Source: Gammaproteobacteria bacterium (GTDB lineage Bacteria > Pseudomonadota > Gammaproteobacteria > JAJDYQ01). Taken from it: DNA of 36,777 bases. Below, one piece after another: positions 2,017 through 7,578 of this stretch; the stretch's first letter is position 1; each line of letters opens with the position of its first letter. The position numbers were made by a program, and so were the translations under genes. Location: the NCBI GenBank assembly GCA_028289815.1, contig JAPYNQ010000070.1:1-36777 (forward strand), read 5' to 3'. Under the pieces are notes generated by a model that was not told where the DNA came from, made no database searches, and saw nothing but the letters and a program-made list of their open reading frames with translations.

Positions 2017-2718
2017 TCAGCCAAATAGTTTGCGTGATTGTATCGAACAATTCGGCAGATAATAATTGATTAGTGATCGGGTGAATCGCTTTGCTTCTCG
2101 TAACTGACGCTCGTTGCTGAATCTGCCTGATGTCAGGGCGACCAGCGTATCACCATGTATCGCTGTGTTTTGTTCGATATCGCAACGGTAAAAGCCCTGT
2201 TCGACCGTAAAGGCATATGCTGTATCGTCTTCTACAGGTGTTTTTCCATCCCTTTCTACAGTCAGCTCTACGCCATATCCCATCAGCCGGATCAGGTTTA
2301 TTTCAAATAGCCTTAACAGGGGTGCAATATGTTCTTTGTCGCAATGTGTCAGTTCGGCAAGCGCTGTATCGTATAAGGCAAACAGGCGAGGCTCTGCCTC
2401 GTTTACGCGAATAATGGAGAGCAGTAGTTCATTGAGATATAAGCCACAGTACAGGCGCTGCTGTTCGGATGATAGCGGGTATATTGCCATTTCATCATAT
2501 TGTCGGAGGGTTTTCAGGCCGGAACGACCGGACCAGCGCAGGTTGTAGCAGCGAAATGGTTCAAGTATGCGGTTTTTTCTGCCGGAACTGCGGCAGCCTT
2601 TGCACAGTATATCAACACGTCCGTATGCTTGTGTCAGCACTGAAATTATTTTGCTCGTCTCGCCATAGTTTCGCCGGTGCAAAATAAATCCGTCTGACTC
2701 TGACTGGTACCGGTTCAC
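2017..2718 (-). CDS. recO: DNA repair protein RecO
   Basis: Recombination mediator that with RecR loads RecA on SSB-coated single-stranded DNA. The reading frame extends back to an ATG at 2787 inside era, but a GTG at 2718 overlaps the era stop as GTGA. It gives 233 residues with about ten residues before the conserved FILHRRNYGETSK, as in E. coli RecO, so I chose it. The N-terminal OB-fold is followed by a helical domain. The era-recO-pdxJ order is classic for gammaproteobacteria and supports the call. Translational coupling to era is likely from the overlap. Confidence 0.92.
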   Translation of the reverse strand: MNRYQSESDGFILHRRNYGETSKIISVLTQAYGRVDILCKGCRSSGRKNRILEPFRCYNLRWSGRSGLKTLRQYDEMAIYPLSSEQQRLYCGLYLNELLLSIIRVNEAEPRLFALYDTALAELTHCDKEHIAPLLRLFEINLIRLMGYGVELTVERDGKTPVEDDTAYAFTVEQGFYRCDIEQNTAIHGDTLVALTSGRFSNERQLREAKRFTRSLINYYLPNCSIQSRKLFG

Positions 2719-3614
2719 CAAGCGTGATATCCGAATGTCCGCAGCAGCTTCGGATTGGTTGACCAGGATTGGCTCACTTTGACCCATAGCCGAATATCAA
2801 TGTGTGTTCCGGTTTCTTTTCGCAGTATTGCCCGTACTTGTTTGCCAATCTCTTTTATTCCCTGACCCCGTGAACCGATAATAATGCGTTTGTGCGTTTC
2901 CTGTTCAACATGTATGGTCGCTTTAATGCGTGTTTCTCCCTGTAGCTCTTCATAATTCTCTATGACTACCGCTGCAGAGTACGGGAGCTCCTGGTTGAAT
3001 CTTCTGAATATCTGCTCTCTGATCAGTTCAGAGGTGTAGAAGCGCATACACTGATCTGTGATCTGCTCTTCGGAAAACATGAATTCTTTGCTGACCGCAT
3101 ATTTACGCAGTATTTTCTCCAGGTAGTTGATATCTGCCGGCCTGCGGCCTGACAGGGGTATGATTTCCTTAAAGTCATATCTTCGCCCGGTATCCCGCAT
3201 AAACTCCAGAGTACGGTTTTTTTGTCGTCTGTAGCGATCAATTTTGTTAATTATGGCAAGGCAGGGGATGGTGTTTCCCGGTATGTATTTCAGGATGGTA
3301 TCTTCGATGGCATCCCAGGTCAGGCCATCAAACATGAATAAAATCAGGTCGGAGTCTGACAGCGCTGAACGTGCGGTTTTGTTCAGCTGCCGCAACAGGG
3401 CGGTGCGTCCGCTATGATTGATGCCGGGGGTATCAATAAAAACGAACTGGTAGTTATCTTTGGTATGGATCGCTTGTATGCGGTGGCGGGTGGTTTGCGG
3501 CCGGCGCGATGTGGTAACAATTTTTTGACCAAGCAGTGTATTGATCAGCGTTGATTTGCCTGCATTGGGACGCCCGACGACTGCAATGATCGTAGTGAAG
3601 TTGTGGTCAGCCAT
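2715..3614 (-). CDS. era: GTPase Era
   Basis: Essential GTPase that binds the 3' end of 16S rRNA during 30S subunit maturation. The 299-residue protein has G1 at 14-22 (GRPNAGKST), G3 DTPG and G4 NKID. A C-terminal KH domain carries IIGSRGQGIKEIG. The G5 region reads PLSGRR, where SA is more usual than SG. The ATG at 3614 overlaps the end of rnc by eight bases, and the stop overlaps the recO GTG, so rnc, era and recO are probably translationally coupled. RNase III and Era act in the same rRNA pathway. Confidence 0.97.
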   Translation of the reverse strand: MADHNFTTIIAVVGRPNAGKSTLINTLLGQKIVTTSRRPQTTRHRIQAIHTKDNYQFVFIDTPGINHSGRTALLRQLNKTARSALSDSDLILFMFDGLTWDAIEDTILKYIPGNTIPCLAIINKIDRYRRQKNRTLEFMRDTGRRYDFKEIIPLSGRRPADINYLEKILRKYAVSKEFMFSEEQITDQCMRFYTSELIREQIFRRFNQELPYSAAVVIENYEELQGETRIKATIHVEQETHKRIIIGSRGQGIKEIGKQVRAILRKETGTHIDIRLWVKVSQSWSTNPKLLRTFGYHAW

Positions 3615-4281
3615 CTGTCAGGCTTTTGAACATCCTGCTGGCAGCAAGCTGTTCGGCTCTGCGACGACTGCTGCCGATTGCCGAGACGGGAGCAGCTCCT
3701 TCCACCAGGCAGTTCACTTCAAATTGCTTTTGGTGATCCATGCCGGTTTGCGCAACTATCGTATACTGCGGTAATTCTCTACCCTGGCACTGTAAAAGTT
3801 CCTGTAATCTGGTCTTTGGATCTTTAAGCTCTTCCGCATCCGGCAGATTCGCGAGAAGTGGCTGGTACAGCTCCAGAATCAGCTTTTTACAGGCTTCAAA
3901 GCCACCATCCAGGAAAACGGCACCCAGTACAGCCTCCATCGCACCGGAGAGAATGGATTTACGCTGTTTACCTCCGTTTTGCTGCTCTCCCTGGCCGAGT
4001 TCAATGTAGTTACCCAGCTGTAGCCGATCCGCGAGAACGGTCAGTGATTCATTATTTACCAGGCTGGCGCGCATACGGCTCAACTCTCCTGCAGACGCAT
4101 TCGGCTTCATTTCATATAATTTTTCTGCAATGCAGAAATTAAGAATGGAGTCACCCAAAAATTCCAGCCTTTCATTGTTTTTACTGCCGACACTGGGATG
4201 GCGGAGGGCTCGCCATAAATACCGACGATCACGGAACTCGTATCGCAGCACTGCCTGGAGCTTTGTTGGTTTTACCGGCAA
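3607..4281 (-). CDS. rnc: Ribonuclease III, with an atypical active site
   Basis: Cleaves double-stranded RNA, including the 30S rRNA precursor. The 224-residue protein has the signature NNERLEFLGDSIL with E40 and D44, and a C-terminal double-stranded RNA binding domain starting near DPKTRLQELLQ. The usual fourth-helix motif ILAD-x-x-EA reads ILSGAMEAVLGA (110-121). E116, the key catalytic Glu, is kept, but the Asp that helps hold magnesium (D114 in E. coli) is Gly at 113. The start is TTG at 4281; no good Shine-Dalgarno is seen. The length matches E. coli RNase III (226). The identity is secure; full catalytic activity is not. Confidence 0.93.
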   Translation of the reverse strand: MPVKPTKLQAVLRYEFRDRRYLWRALRHPSVGSKNNERLEFLGDSILNFCIAEKLYEMKPNASAGELSRMRASLVNNESLTVLADRLQLGNYIELGQGEQQNGGKQRKSILSGAMEAVLGAVFLDGGFEACKKLILELYQPLLANLPDAEELKDPKTRLQELLQCQGRELPQYTIVAQTGMDHQKQFEVNCLVEGAAPVSAIGSSRRRAEQLAASRMFKSLTDG

Positions 4282-4289
4282 TGTTTTAA

Positions 4290-4667
4290 TCAGCGCGGGA
4301 CTTCCACTGTCTTTTGAAAATCAACGAAAACGCCAACATTCTTGAACAATATGGTCCGTGCCTCGTAGTTCGCCGATACATTCCAGACTTTTTTCTCTTT
4401 TGATTTCTCGAATTCAATATCTTTGCTGTTTATGACTTTCACATCATTGATAAGAAAGTAATTTGCAATCTTGTTTTGCATTGCTCTTTTACCCATTTTA
4501 CCAATTTTGGTATCCGCCGCGAGGCTGTCCAAGGCAGAATTTACCGTTGAATTTTGCAGATACAGCGGTGTTACCTTAAGAATTATCAGTGCGAAAAATC
4601 CAATAAGGCTCAGTACAATCAACAGGCTTAAAAATGTTATACCTCTTTGATTACTTTTCACCAGCAT
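4290..4667 (-). CDS. DUF4845 single-pass membrane protein
   Basis: Unknown function; a 125-residue protein of the DUF4845 family that usually sits between lepB and rnc in gammaproteobacteria, as here. Residues 8-31 resemble a type IV pilin-like N-terminus (RGITFLSLLIVLSLIGFFAL) forming one membrane segment. The rest is predicted periplasmic, with no cysteines or evident catalytic residues. The ATG at 4667 has a Shine-Dalgarno GGGAG about seven bases upstream. Position next to signal peptidase suggests an envelope role, which is only inference. Confidence 0.88.
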   Translation of the reverse strand: MLVKSNQRGITFLSLLIVLSLIGFFALIILKVTPLYLQNSTVNSALDSLAADTKIGKMGKRAMQNKIANYFLINDVKVINSKDIEFEKSKEKKVWNVSANYEARTILFKNVGVFVDFQKTVEVPR

Positions 4668-4685: not shown

Positions 4686-5492
4686 TTAATCTATCCTGCT
4701 TCCTATTCTTCCAAATCTGATGCTGTAGTCATCATTGTCCCAGCTCATCCATATATGATCAGCTCGTCCTACCAGATTATCAACCGGGACAAACCCCCAA
4801 TAACGACTGTCATTACTATTATCACGATTATCGCCTATCACAAAATAATGTCCATCGGGAACAAGGATGATACCCTCCAATCCCGGTTTGTGGCTTTGCT
4901 CCAAGGTATTAAATCGGTGCTCGCCGATGACTTCGCTGTAAACGGTGATTGGCGGCTGCATCAGTTCATAACCTTCGCCGCTGTAATTGCCCTTATGAAT
5001 TTTGTCAACTTTTCTGCCGTTAATCGCCAGTGTTTTATTGATGTAGGCAATCTGATCGCCCGGCAGTCCAATCACCCGTTTAATATAATCGAACGATGGG
5101 TCGTTGGGAAAACGAAATACGGCTACGTCTCCTCGTTCAGGATCGTTCCCCGAACCGGGAATTTTCCATTCTGTAACCGGAATGCGAAGGCCGTATGCAA
5201 ACTTGTTTACCAGAATGAAATCGCCTATCAGCAGGGTCGGCATCATGGAACCTGAAGGTATTCTGAACGGTTCGTATATGAATGACCGCAGGATAAGCAC
5301 CAGCAGGATAACAGGGAATAAGGAACGGGCATATTCAGTAGCTACCGGTTCCTTGAGATAATCGGCATCGGTTTCCAGCTTGTCTGTATTGTTCCGTTCT
5401 CTGGCCTTTTTATAAAATATGGTGTCCGCCAACCAGATTATGCCGGCAATGGCGGCGGCAATGACTAAAAATGCAGCGAAATCAAAGTGCAT
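4686..5492 (-). CDS. lepB: Signal peptidase I
   Basis: Cleaves signal peptides of exported preproteins at the periplasmic face of the inner membrane. The 268-residue protein has two N-terminal membrane segments (about 5-27 and 57-72). The catalytic serine is S82 in IPSGSMMPT and the general-base lysine is K138 in YIKRVIGLPGD. The box GDNRDNSNDSRYWG lies near the C-terminus. The ATG at 5492 follows a strong GGGGG Shine-Dalgarno. lepA lies 15 bases upstream, so lepA-lepB form the usual operon pair. Confidence 0.97.
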   Translation of the reverse strand: MHFDFAAFLVIAAAIAGIIWLADTIFYKKARERNNTDKLETDADYLKEPVATEYARSLFPVILLVLILRSFIYEPFRIPSGSMMPTLLIGDFILVNKFAYGLRIPVTEWKIPGSGNDPERGDVAVFRFPNDPSFDYIKRVIGLPGDQIAYINKTLAINGRKVDKIHKGNYSGEGYELMQPPITVYSEVIGEHRFNTLEQSHKPGLEGIILVPDGHYFVIGDNRDNSNDSRYWGFVPVDNLVGRADHIWMSWDNDDYSIRFGRIGSRID

Positions 5493-5507: not shown

Positions 5508-7295
5508 TCAGTTATCTATTTTGAGCATCGCCATGAAGGCGTCTTGAGGTATTTCTACGCTACCTATCTGTTTCATGCGCTTTTTTCCTTCTTTCTGCTT
5601 TTCCAGCAGTTTGCGTTTGCGTGTGACATCGCCACCGTAACACTTGGCTGTGACATTTTTTCGTAGCGCTTTGACGGTGGAACGTGCGATCACCTTTGAG
5701 CCAATTACTGCCTGAATTGCAACTTCAAACATCTGCCGGGGTATCAGCTCTTTCATCTTGTCCGTTAGTTCACGACCGCGACGATCACTCAGGGCACGAT
5801 GCACAATGATGGACAGGGCATCAACTTTATCGCCGTTGATCAGAATATCGACTTTTACCACGGGAGCAACCTGATATTTAGTAAAATAATAATCAAAAGA
5901 CGCGTAACCACGGCTTACTGATTTCAGCCGGTCGTAAAAATCCAATACCACTTCAGACATGGGTAGCTCGTACTCTACTGATACCTGGTTACCCATGTAT
6001 TGCAGGCCTTTTTGTACTCCACGTTTTTCTATGCAGAGGTTGATTATCGGTCCTACATAGTCAGAGGGCACCAGAATACCGGCTTTAATTATCGGTTCTC
6101 GTATTTCACTGATCTTGTTCGGGGCCGGTAAATCAGCAGGGTTATCAATAGTAAAAATCTGGCCATCTGTGCCCAGTACCTCGTAAATCACCGTGGGTGC
6201 GCTGCTGATAAGATCAAGATTGTATTCGCGTTCCAGGCGCTCCTGGACGATTTCCATATGCAGCATGCCCAGAAATCCACACCGGAAACCAGCCCCCAAC
6301 GCCTGCGAGTTTTCAGGTTCAAAGTGCAGCGCCGCATCATTCAGACTCAGTTTATTCAGCGCATCCCGAAATGACTCGAAATCATCGGAACCCAGAGGAA
6401 ACAAGCCTGCAAATACTTTCGGTTGTACGCGCTCAAATCCGGGCAAAACTGCAACATTCTTTCCGGCCAGTGTCAGGGTATCACCCACCGGAGCACCATG
6501 AATATCTTTTACTCCTGCAATCATGTAGCCTACTTCGCCTGTTTCCAGCGCTTTGTGGGATGTTCGCTTCGGTGTGAAAACACCCAGTTCGTCGATACCA
6601 TACTCCCCTCCCGTGGATATAACCTTGATTTTCCGGCCTTTCTCCAGGCAACCGTCAATCATTTTAATCAGCGAGATAACTCCGACATAATTATCGAACC
6701 AGGAATCCATGATAAGCGCCCTCGGGGCAGCTTCAGGGTTTCCGGATGGCGACGGAATCAGTTTTACGATCTGTTCCAGCAGTTCTTCAATTCCTGCGCC
6801 TGTCTTCGCGCTTACAGCCAAGGCATCAGTGGCATCAATGCCAATAATGTCTTCTATTTCCCGGGTGACTCGATCAGGTTCAGCGGCCGGCAGATCAATT
6901 TTGTTCAGTACCGGTACAACTTCCAGTCCGAGGTCTATTGCCGTATAGCAGTTAGCCACACTCTGCGCCTCTACACCTTGTGCAGCATCAACAACCAGCA
7001 GCGCACCTTCACAGGCAGCCAGTGAACGGGATACTTCGTAAGCGAAATCAACGTGTCCCGGAGTATCAATCAGGTTAAGCTGATAGGTTTTTCCGTCTGC
7101 GGCCGTATAGTTGAGTGATACGCTTTGGGCCTTGATGGTAATACCACGCTCACGCTCAATATCCATTGAATCCAGTATTTGGGTTTCCATCTCACGCTCA
7201 CTCAGGCCACCACATTTTTGTATAAAACGATCTGCCAGTGTTGATTTACCATGATCAATATGAGCAATGATGGCAAAATTTCGTATATGGTTCAT
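5508..7295 (-). CDS. lepA: Elongation factor 4 (LepA)
   Basis: Ribosome-associated GTPase acting in translation under stress and in 30S assembly. From the ATG at 7295 the protein begins [19 protein letters not shown], matching the E. coli start. A TTG three codons upstream would add only three residues, so I took the ATG. Length 595 residues (E. coli 599). G1 is at 11-19, G3 reads DTPGHVDF and G4 NKID. The LepA-specific C-terminal domain ends with a basic stretch [15 protein letters not shown] and a final MLKIDN. Confidence 0.97.
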
Positions 7296-7578
7296 GTACG
7301 GCAATGCCGGCCCGGCCTGGACAAACCCGGTATTTTATCGTGAACGGAACGGTTCAGGGTAGGCGGATTACCGTGACCGGGCTGAAGCCAATCTGATTAA
7401 ACCACAGTTCCCTGCCAATGCCGGGATGTACGGCTCAAATACAGTAAACGGCATTTCTTCAGGCTGATGTACACAGTACAGCATTAATAATACTCTTAAA
7501 ATGCTCGTTTACTCGAGGCAAATCGCGCTTTCTTTGCGCGCTGTCCCCGCACTTGCCAAGGCAGGCTTCCACAGTCTG
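7296..7578. other. Gene-free spacer between mucD and lepA
   Basis: 283 bases without a supported gene, both flanking genes on the minus strand. Read on the minus strand just after the mucD stop, CGCGC-AAAGAAA-GCGCG can form a five-base-pair hairpin, but only ATTT follows, so it is at best a weak terminator. Nearer lepA the sequence GATAAAAT offers a possible -10 without a convincing -35. The spacer probably separates the sigma-E operon from the lepA-lepB-rnc-era operon. Confidence 0.5.

What the first reader, a model, noticed from the sequence alone, without database searches (positions are those of the whole stretch)
3607..4281. RNase III lacks one of its four usual acidic active-site residues
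Seen: the motif normally ILAD-x-x-EA reads ILSGAMEA, so codon 113 is GGT (Gly) where Asp is expected; E40, D44 and E116 are present. Known: in RNase III this Asp (D114 in E. coli, D107 in Aquifex) helps coordinate magnesium. Inference: either a lineage-specific active-site change that alters activity or metal use, or a single-base error (GAT to GGT). Ser for the preceding Ala suggests it is a real local change, not one miscall.
Basis: partly seen in the sequence, partly recalled or inferred. Interest (0 to 1): 0.5.

Follow-up and report, generated by a model that had tools for sequence, protein, structure and literature searches.

The report
RNase III with two acidic residues lost
This bacterium's double-strand RNA-cutting enzyme lacks an active-site aspartate that some of its relatives also lack, and in addition a nearly invariant glutamate beside the RNA groove, a change once made on purpose in the E. 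coli enzyme, so it is probably a working but altered enzyme.

Summary
In detail: rnc lies on the minus strand (3607-4281) and codon 113 (E. coli D114) is GGT, Gly; E41, D45 and E117 are kept. The reading needs correcting. In 251 aligned RNase III rows position 114 is Asp in 199, Asn 29, Gly 19, Cys 3, Ser 1, while E41, D45 and E117 are invariant; a published E. coli enzyme-RNA structure has D114 as the only one of the four without direct Mg2+ contact. Gly114 is thus a recurrent substitution at the tolerant member of the quartet. The congener (74% identical) keeps both acids, so both losses fall on this lineage. Together they remove four of twelve negative charges of the dimer's catalytic valley, as many as an engineered E38A/E65A variant. 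The gene looks constrained, is the only RNase III found in the genome, and the genome's 23S gene carries an insert of the kind RNase III excises. Most likely: an active class I RNase III with altered magnesium need and RNA binding. Nothing was assayed; no reads were available.

The parts
3607..4281 (-). rnc, ribonuclease III, 224 aa, TTG start (stop codon included)
3943..3945 (-). codon 113 GGT (Gly), equivalent to E. coli D114
   Evidence: alignment
4090..4092 (-). codon 64 GCA (Ala), equivalent to E. coli E65; Glu in 250 of 251 aligned rows
4150..4173 (-). signature ERLEFLGD (codons 37-44) with E40 and D44 (E. coli E41, D45), intact
   Evidence: coordinates computed from the codon numbers
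3934..3936 (-). codon 116, Glu (E. coli E117), intact
   Evidence: coordinates computed from the codon number
2715..3614 (-). era, downstream, its start overlapping the end of rnc
2017..2787 (-). recO
4290..4667 (-). DUF4845 protein upstream of rnc
4686..5492 (-). lepB, signal peptidase I
5508..7304 (-). lepA

Best explanation
It is a still working class I RNase III, the only one found in the genome, with a remodelled catalytic valley. The three side chains that bind Mg2+ directly in the E. coli complex (E41, D45, E117) are kept. The fourth, D114, has become Gly, a substitution made repeatedly in the family and probably tolerated at some cost at low Mg2+. In the same lineage the RNA-facing Glu65 became Ala, which takes charge repulsion out of the groove. 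I infer that this second change alters RNA affinity and may offset the first. Shown: the sequence, its distribution, a constrained gene, a confident predicted fold and a likely natural substrate in the genome. Inferred: activity, higher Mg2+ need, altered binding and the compensation.
For: E41, D45 and E117 in 251 of 251 rows, Asp114 in 199 of 251. On a tree of 251 rows (E. coli in; Aquifex and L183 out) position 114 needs 27 changes, each of the three none, the median of 226 columns 63. D114 is the only one of the four without direct Mg2+ contact in the E. coli complex (PMC9291653, passages). D114A in E. coli is weakly active in vitro in excess magnesium, not dead (PMC8708148 Table 1, passage). 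Of 45 columns at least 95% conserved in the same-class rows the window breaks only E65. dN/dS against L002 is 0.15, neighbours 0.094-0.149; dS is 1.1-1.5, so these are rough. AlphaFold2 model, mean pLDDT 96.5, helix 108-144 unbroken through Gly113; best PDB match 7r97. One RNase III in the genome (assembly 96.86% complete). The 23S gene of the same assembly has an insert with 26-nt, 88% complementary ends, the kind RNase III excises (PMC4990558, abstract and passages). E38A plus E65A stabilises the RNA complex of the E. coli enzyme (PMC9291653 section 6).
Against: E65A alone is listed as inactive in vivo, weak in vitro and low in RNA binding in E. coli; D114A too shows low binding (PMC8708148 Table 1). 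The double change occurs in 1 of 251 rows, so no relative shows that it works. In the Entamoeba enzyme the equivalent Asp does touch a Mn2+ ion (PMC5357909, passages). The window branch of rnc carries 22 replacements against 10 on the L002 branch (p 0.050), though not significantly more lopsided than three neighbours together, 48:32 (Fisher p 0.52). No column was shown to compensate for loss of D114 on the tree; that test was underpowered (6 supported pairs).
Confidence: 0.62

Rival explanations
1. The enzyme is catalytically dead or nearly so and survives as a dsRNA-binding regulator, as E. coli E117K/A/Q proteins bind without cutting.
For: Two conserved acidic residues are lost together; E65A alone is listed as inactive in vivo, and E117K/A/Q as binding but inactive, in E. 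coli (PMC8708148 Table 1, passage); the double loss is unique in 251 rows.
Against: E41, D45 and E117 are intact. A residue other than Asp at 114 occurs in 51 other rows, all with E41, D45 and E117. The genome shows no other RNase III and carries an RNase III-type substrate in its 23S gene. dN/dS is 0.15.
Confidence: 0.18
2. One or both codons are assembly or sequencing errors in a draft assembly.
For: The assembly is in 89 contigs; each codon is one base from that of the congener (GAA to GCA, GAT to GGT); no reads could be seen.
Against: No other strongly conserved column is broken, the frame is open and dN/dS is low. Two errors both falling on valley acids would be a coincidence, and Gly is the state at 114 in 18 other rows.
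Confidence: 0.1
3. Neutral drift: both changes are tolerated and neither alters function measurably. This overlaps with the best explanation in that the enzyme is active; the odds are therefore not exclusive.
For: Position 114 changes often. Two of six valley acids among 22 window-specific replacements at 214 sites is not improbable if all sites were free (p 0.12).
Against: E65 is not free: 250 of 251 rows keep Glu, and a pattern search of 369 class genomes found one further non-Glu rnc, with Val.
Confidence: 0.2

Closest known systems
E. coli RNase III (class I bacterial RNase III)
   Same: Domain order, signature ERLEFLGD, E41, D45, E117, dsRBD; 45% identical to 7r97 in the structural match
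   Different: Gly for D114 and Ala for E65
Engineered E. coli RNase III E38A/E65A/Q165A ('bacterial Dicer', PDB 7r97)
   Same: Ala at position 65; four of the twelve valley charges per dimer removed (count from PMC9291653 section 6)
   Different: Keeps E38 and Q165; lacks D114, which the engineered enzyme keeps
RNase IIIs without Asp at 114 in the same class (Gly, Asn, Cys) and in another class of the phylum (Asn, Ser)
   Same: Loss of the D114 carboxylate with E41, D45, E117 kept
   Different: The 51 other such rows all keep E65
First RNase III domain of some class III enzymes, with Asp to Asn at this position
   Same: Natural replacement at the same residue (PMC5357909, passages)
   Different: Eukaryotic two-domain enzymes; Asn, not Gly

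Membership tests
Class I bacterial RNase III (TIGR02191) | Score above the curated cut-off over nearly the full length | tested here: met
   229.7 bits against 166.25, residues 9-220 of 224
Class I bacterial RNase III (TIGR02191) | One RNase III domain followed by one dsRNA-binding domain | tested here: met
   PF14622/PF00636 and PF00035
Class I bacterial RNase III (TIGR02191) | Signature motif ERLEFLGD with E41 and D45, and E117 | tested here: met
   the three acids are invariant in 251 of 251
Class I bacterial RNase III (TIGR02191) | Asp at 114: usually listed as the fourth active-site acid, but shown here not to define the family | tested here: not met
   Gly in the window; not Asp in 52 of 251 rows
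Class I bacterial RNase III (TIGR02191) | Glu at 65 on the RNA-contacting surface: highly conserved, outside the catalytic quartet | tested here: not met
   Ala in the window; Glu in 250 of 251; Val in G008, outside the alignment
Class I bacterial RNase III (TIGR02191) | Homodimer cleaving dsRNA with divalent metal | not testable with these tools
   no assay; only a monomer model
Mini-RNase III | RNase III domain without dsRNA-binding domain (definition recalled) | tested here: not met
   dsRBD present
Catalytically dead RNase III-like proteins | Loss of the directly metal-binding residues E41, D45 or E117 (definition recalled) | tested here: not met
   all three kept

The most novel reading that the evidence does not exclude
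A natural counterpart of the engineered bacterial Dicer: losing Glu65 compensates for losing Asp114 by removing charge repulsion in the RNA groove, so that this RNase III binds long dsRNA tightly, cuts cooperatively from inside and releases roughly 22-bp products. More widely, RNase IIIs may keep a budget of valley charge, spent at 38, 65 or 114 but rarely at two of them.
Probability: 0.1. Interest if true: 0.65.

Novelty: new variant of a known kind. Interest (0 to 1): 0.3.

Why it matters
It refines a common statement: of the four acids drawn in the RNase III active site, D114 has been replaced repeatedly in the sampled bacteria while the other three never were, which agrees with the E. coli complex and offers natural enzymes to test the two-metal mechanism. 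The Glu65 loss gives a natural protein in which an engineering idea about RNA-groove charge can be tested.

Tried and rejected
Compensating residues: several columns associate with loss of D114 in a plain Fisher test (best 150 and 180, acid), but on the tree only 6 supported independent pairs exist; in the part of the output that was shown no tested column gave a signal, and with so few pairs it hardly could (output partly cut). Taken as relatedness, not as compensation.

A second RNase III standing in for this one: none found in the genome by protein or by Pfam family.

rRNA processing stalks: no 16S match was returned, but part of the genome is withheld from view, so this says nothing about its presence; the 23S gene is cut at a contig end. 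The stalks could not be examined and the 23S insert was used instead. The two congeners show no 23S match (0 of 2).

Mutual exclusion of E38Q and not-Asp114 in the other class of the phylum (0 of 11 against 15 of 31, Fisher p 0.003) is not corrected for relatedness (E38 needs 5 changes on the tree); kept only as an idea.

One search used a faulty pattern (58 instead of 57 free bases; seen); its result is discarded and replaced.

In print: in the listings (20 of 24 papers listed; 8 of 14 listed) and in the passages of six papers I saw no statement about natural replacement of D114 or E65 in a bacterial RNase III. Subscription papers are mostly not in this library; the original E. coli mutant study cited as reference 21 of PMC8708148 was not seen.

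Full report
What is there. The finding lies on the minus strand. Window 3607-4281 encodes a 224-residue class I RNase III with a TTG start. TIGR02191 scores it 229.7 bits against a cut-off of 166.25, and it has the RNase III and dsRNA-binding domains. It lies in the order lepA-lepB-DUF4845-rnc-era-recO-pdxJ, all on the minus strand, downstream of a sigma factor, RseA, RseB and RseC homologues and a trypsin-like PDZ protease. Codon 113 is GGT (3943-3945), equivalent to E. coli D114. E41, D45 and E117 are present.

The sample. I collected RNase III genes from genomes of the same genus, class and phylum and a few named records: 254 loci, of which 4 were dropped (L001 and L184, copies of the window; L176 and L181, identical to L002 and L046), plus the window, giving 251 rows: 203 of the same class (window and 2 congeners included), 42 of another class of the phylum, 6 named. 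One gene is still in twice (L146 and L213, both Asp). The sample leans to the best-scoring matches: 53 of 56, 347 of 369 and 286 of 299 genomes had a match, and only part of these was fetched; the three left out (G008, G020, G048) were among the weak ones.

How unusual is Gly at 114? Position 114 is Asp 199, Asn 29, Gly 19 (window included), Cys 3, Ser 1. In the 203 same-class rows it is Asp 168, Gly 19, Asn 14, Cys 2; in the 42 rows of the other class Asp 27, Asn 14, Ser 1; in the 6 named rows Asp 4, Cys 1, Asn 1. E41, D45 and E117 are invariant in all 251. On a FastTree of 251 rows (E. coli in; Aquifex and L183 out) position 114 needs at least 26 changes between Asp and not-Asp, 21 of them within the same-class rows plus E. 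coli; E41, D45 and E117 need none; the median of 226 columns is 63. Support is modest (in the similar tree, 99 of 250 inner branches were open), so these numbers are approximate.

Why the position may be tolerant. In the structure of an engineered E. coli RNase III with RNA, D114 is the only one of the four catalytic side chains that does not coordinate Mg2+ directly (PMC9291653, passages). A review table lists D114A as weakly active in vitro in excess magnesium, with low dsRNA binding, while E117K/A/Q are inactive (PMC8708148, passages with Table 1 and its footnote). Against this, in the Entamoeba enzyme with Mn2+ the equivalent Asp does touch a metal (PMC5357909, passages); the same paper notes Asp to Asn in the first domain of some class III enzymes. 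D114 is nevertheless described as highly conserved (PMC8708148, PMC3839596, PMC6121014; passages).

The change that was missed. Codon 64, equivalent to E. coli E65, is GCA, Ala (4090-4092). Glu stands there in 250 of 251 rows. Of 45 columns at least 95% conserved in the same-class rows the window breaks this one only; the median row breaks none. A DNA pattern for codon 65 with a second base other than A was run on 369 class genomes: 12 matched, once each. Two of the 12 lie in rnc: the window and G008. Seven others lie elsewhere by coordinates; the last three (G171, G214, G262), whose rnc place was not listed or which had no rnc match, I excluded by reading the matched letters. G008, a divergent sequence not in the alignment, has Val65 and keeps Asp114. 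The Glu form of the pattern recognises 180 of 202 same-class loci, so about a tenth of rnc genes would escape, and replacement codons with A in the middle are not detected.

When it happened. The nearest relative, L002 (same genus, 74% identical), has Glu and Asp at the two positions, and so has L003, 56% identical. Both changes therefore fall most simply on the window's own branch. The gene looks constrained (dN/dS 0.15 against L002; era 0.105, lepB 0.094, DUF4845 0.149), but dS is 1.1-1.5, near saturation, so the ratios are rough. There are 22 window-specific against 10 L002-specific replacements at 214 sites (p 0.050); the three neighbours together show 48:32, not significantly different (Fisher p 0.52). 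Two of six valley acids among 22 replacements is not improbable by itself if all sites were free (p 0.12); the oddity rests on the conservation of E65.

What it may do. PMC9291653 (section 6 read whole) counts twelve negative side chains in the catalytic valley of the dimer: E38, E65 and the four catalytic acids, twice. The engineered E38A/E65A/Q165A enzyme loses four, binds RNA more stably and gives 22-nt products. The window protein also loses four (E65 and D114, twice) but keeps E38 and Q165. Among 251 rows, 63 lack at least one of the acids at 38, 65 and 114, and the window alone lacks two. I infer altered Mg2+ dependence and altered RNA binding. The published single mutants speak partly against easy compensation: E65A alone is listed as inactive in vivo and low in RNA binding.

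Is it still an enzyme? It is the only RNase III found in the genome. The predicted fold is confident (57-row alignment, mean pLDDT 96.5; helix 108-144 runs through Gly113) and matches 7r97 best; this was a monomer model without metal or RNA. The 23S rRNA gene in the same assembly (L259) holds an insert with 26-nt, 88% complementary ends, 305 nt apart, whose RNA folds at -129.2 kcal/mol, z -4.35, 0 of 100 shuffles as good, with an 84-codon frame without Pfam match. Such intervening sequences are excised by RNase III in Coxiella and others (PMC4990558, abstract and passages). That is a likely substrate, not proof of cutting, and the contig could in principle be misbinned.

Verdict. The pairing with E65A is a natural variant of class I RNase III seen once in this sample, probably active. 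Reads and assays were not available.

Noticed in passing
L259:791-1147 (contig of the same assembly, not in the window): 23S rRNA gene with an intervening sequence: 26-nt inverted repeats 88% complementary, 305 nt between them, 84-aa frame 821-1075 on the minus strand without Pfam match.
   Followed up: partly
   Followed up: yes
42 rows of another class of the same phylum (loci between L194 and L251): E38, the other RNA-facing acid, is Gln in 11 of 42, and these 11 all keep Asp114.
   Followed up: partly
L270 (G008): Divergent RNase III with Val at the E65 position and Asp at 114.
   Followed up: partly
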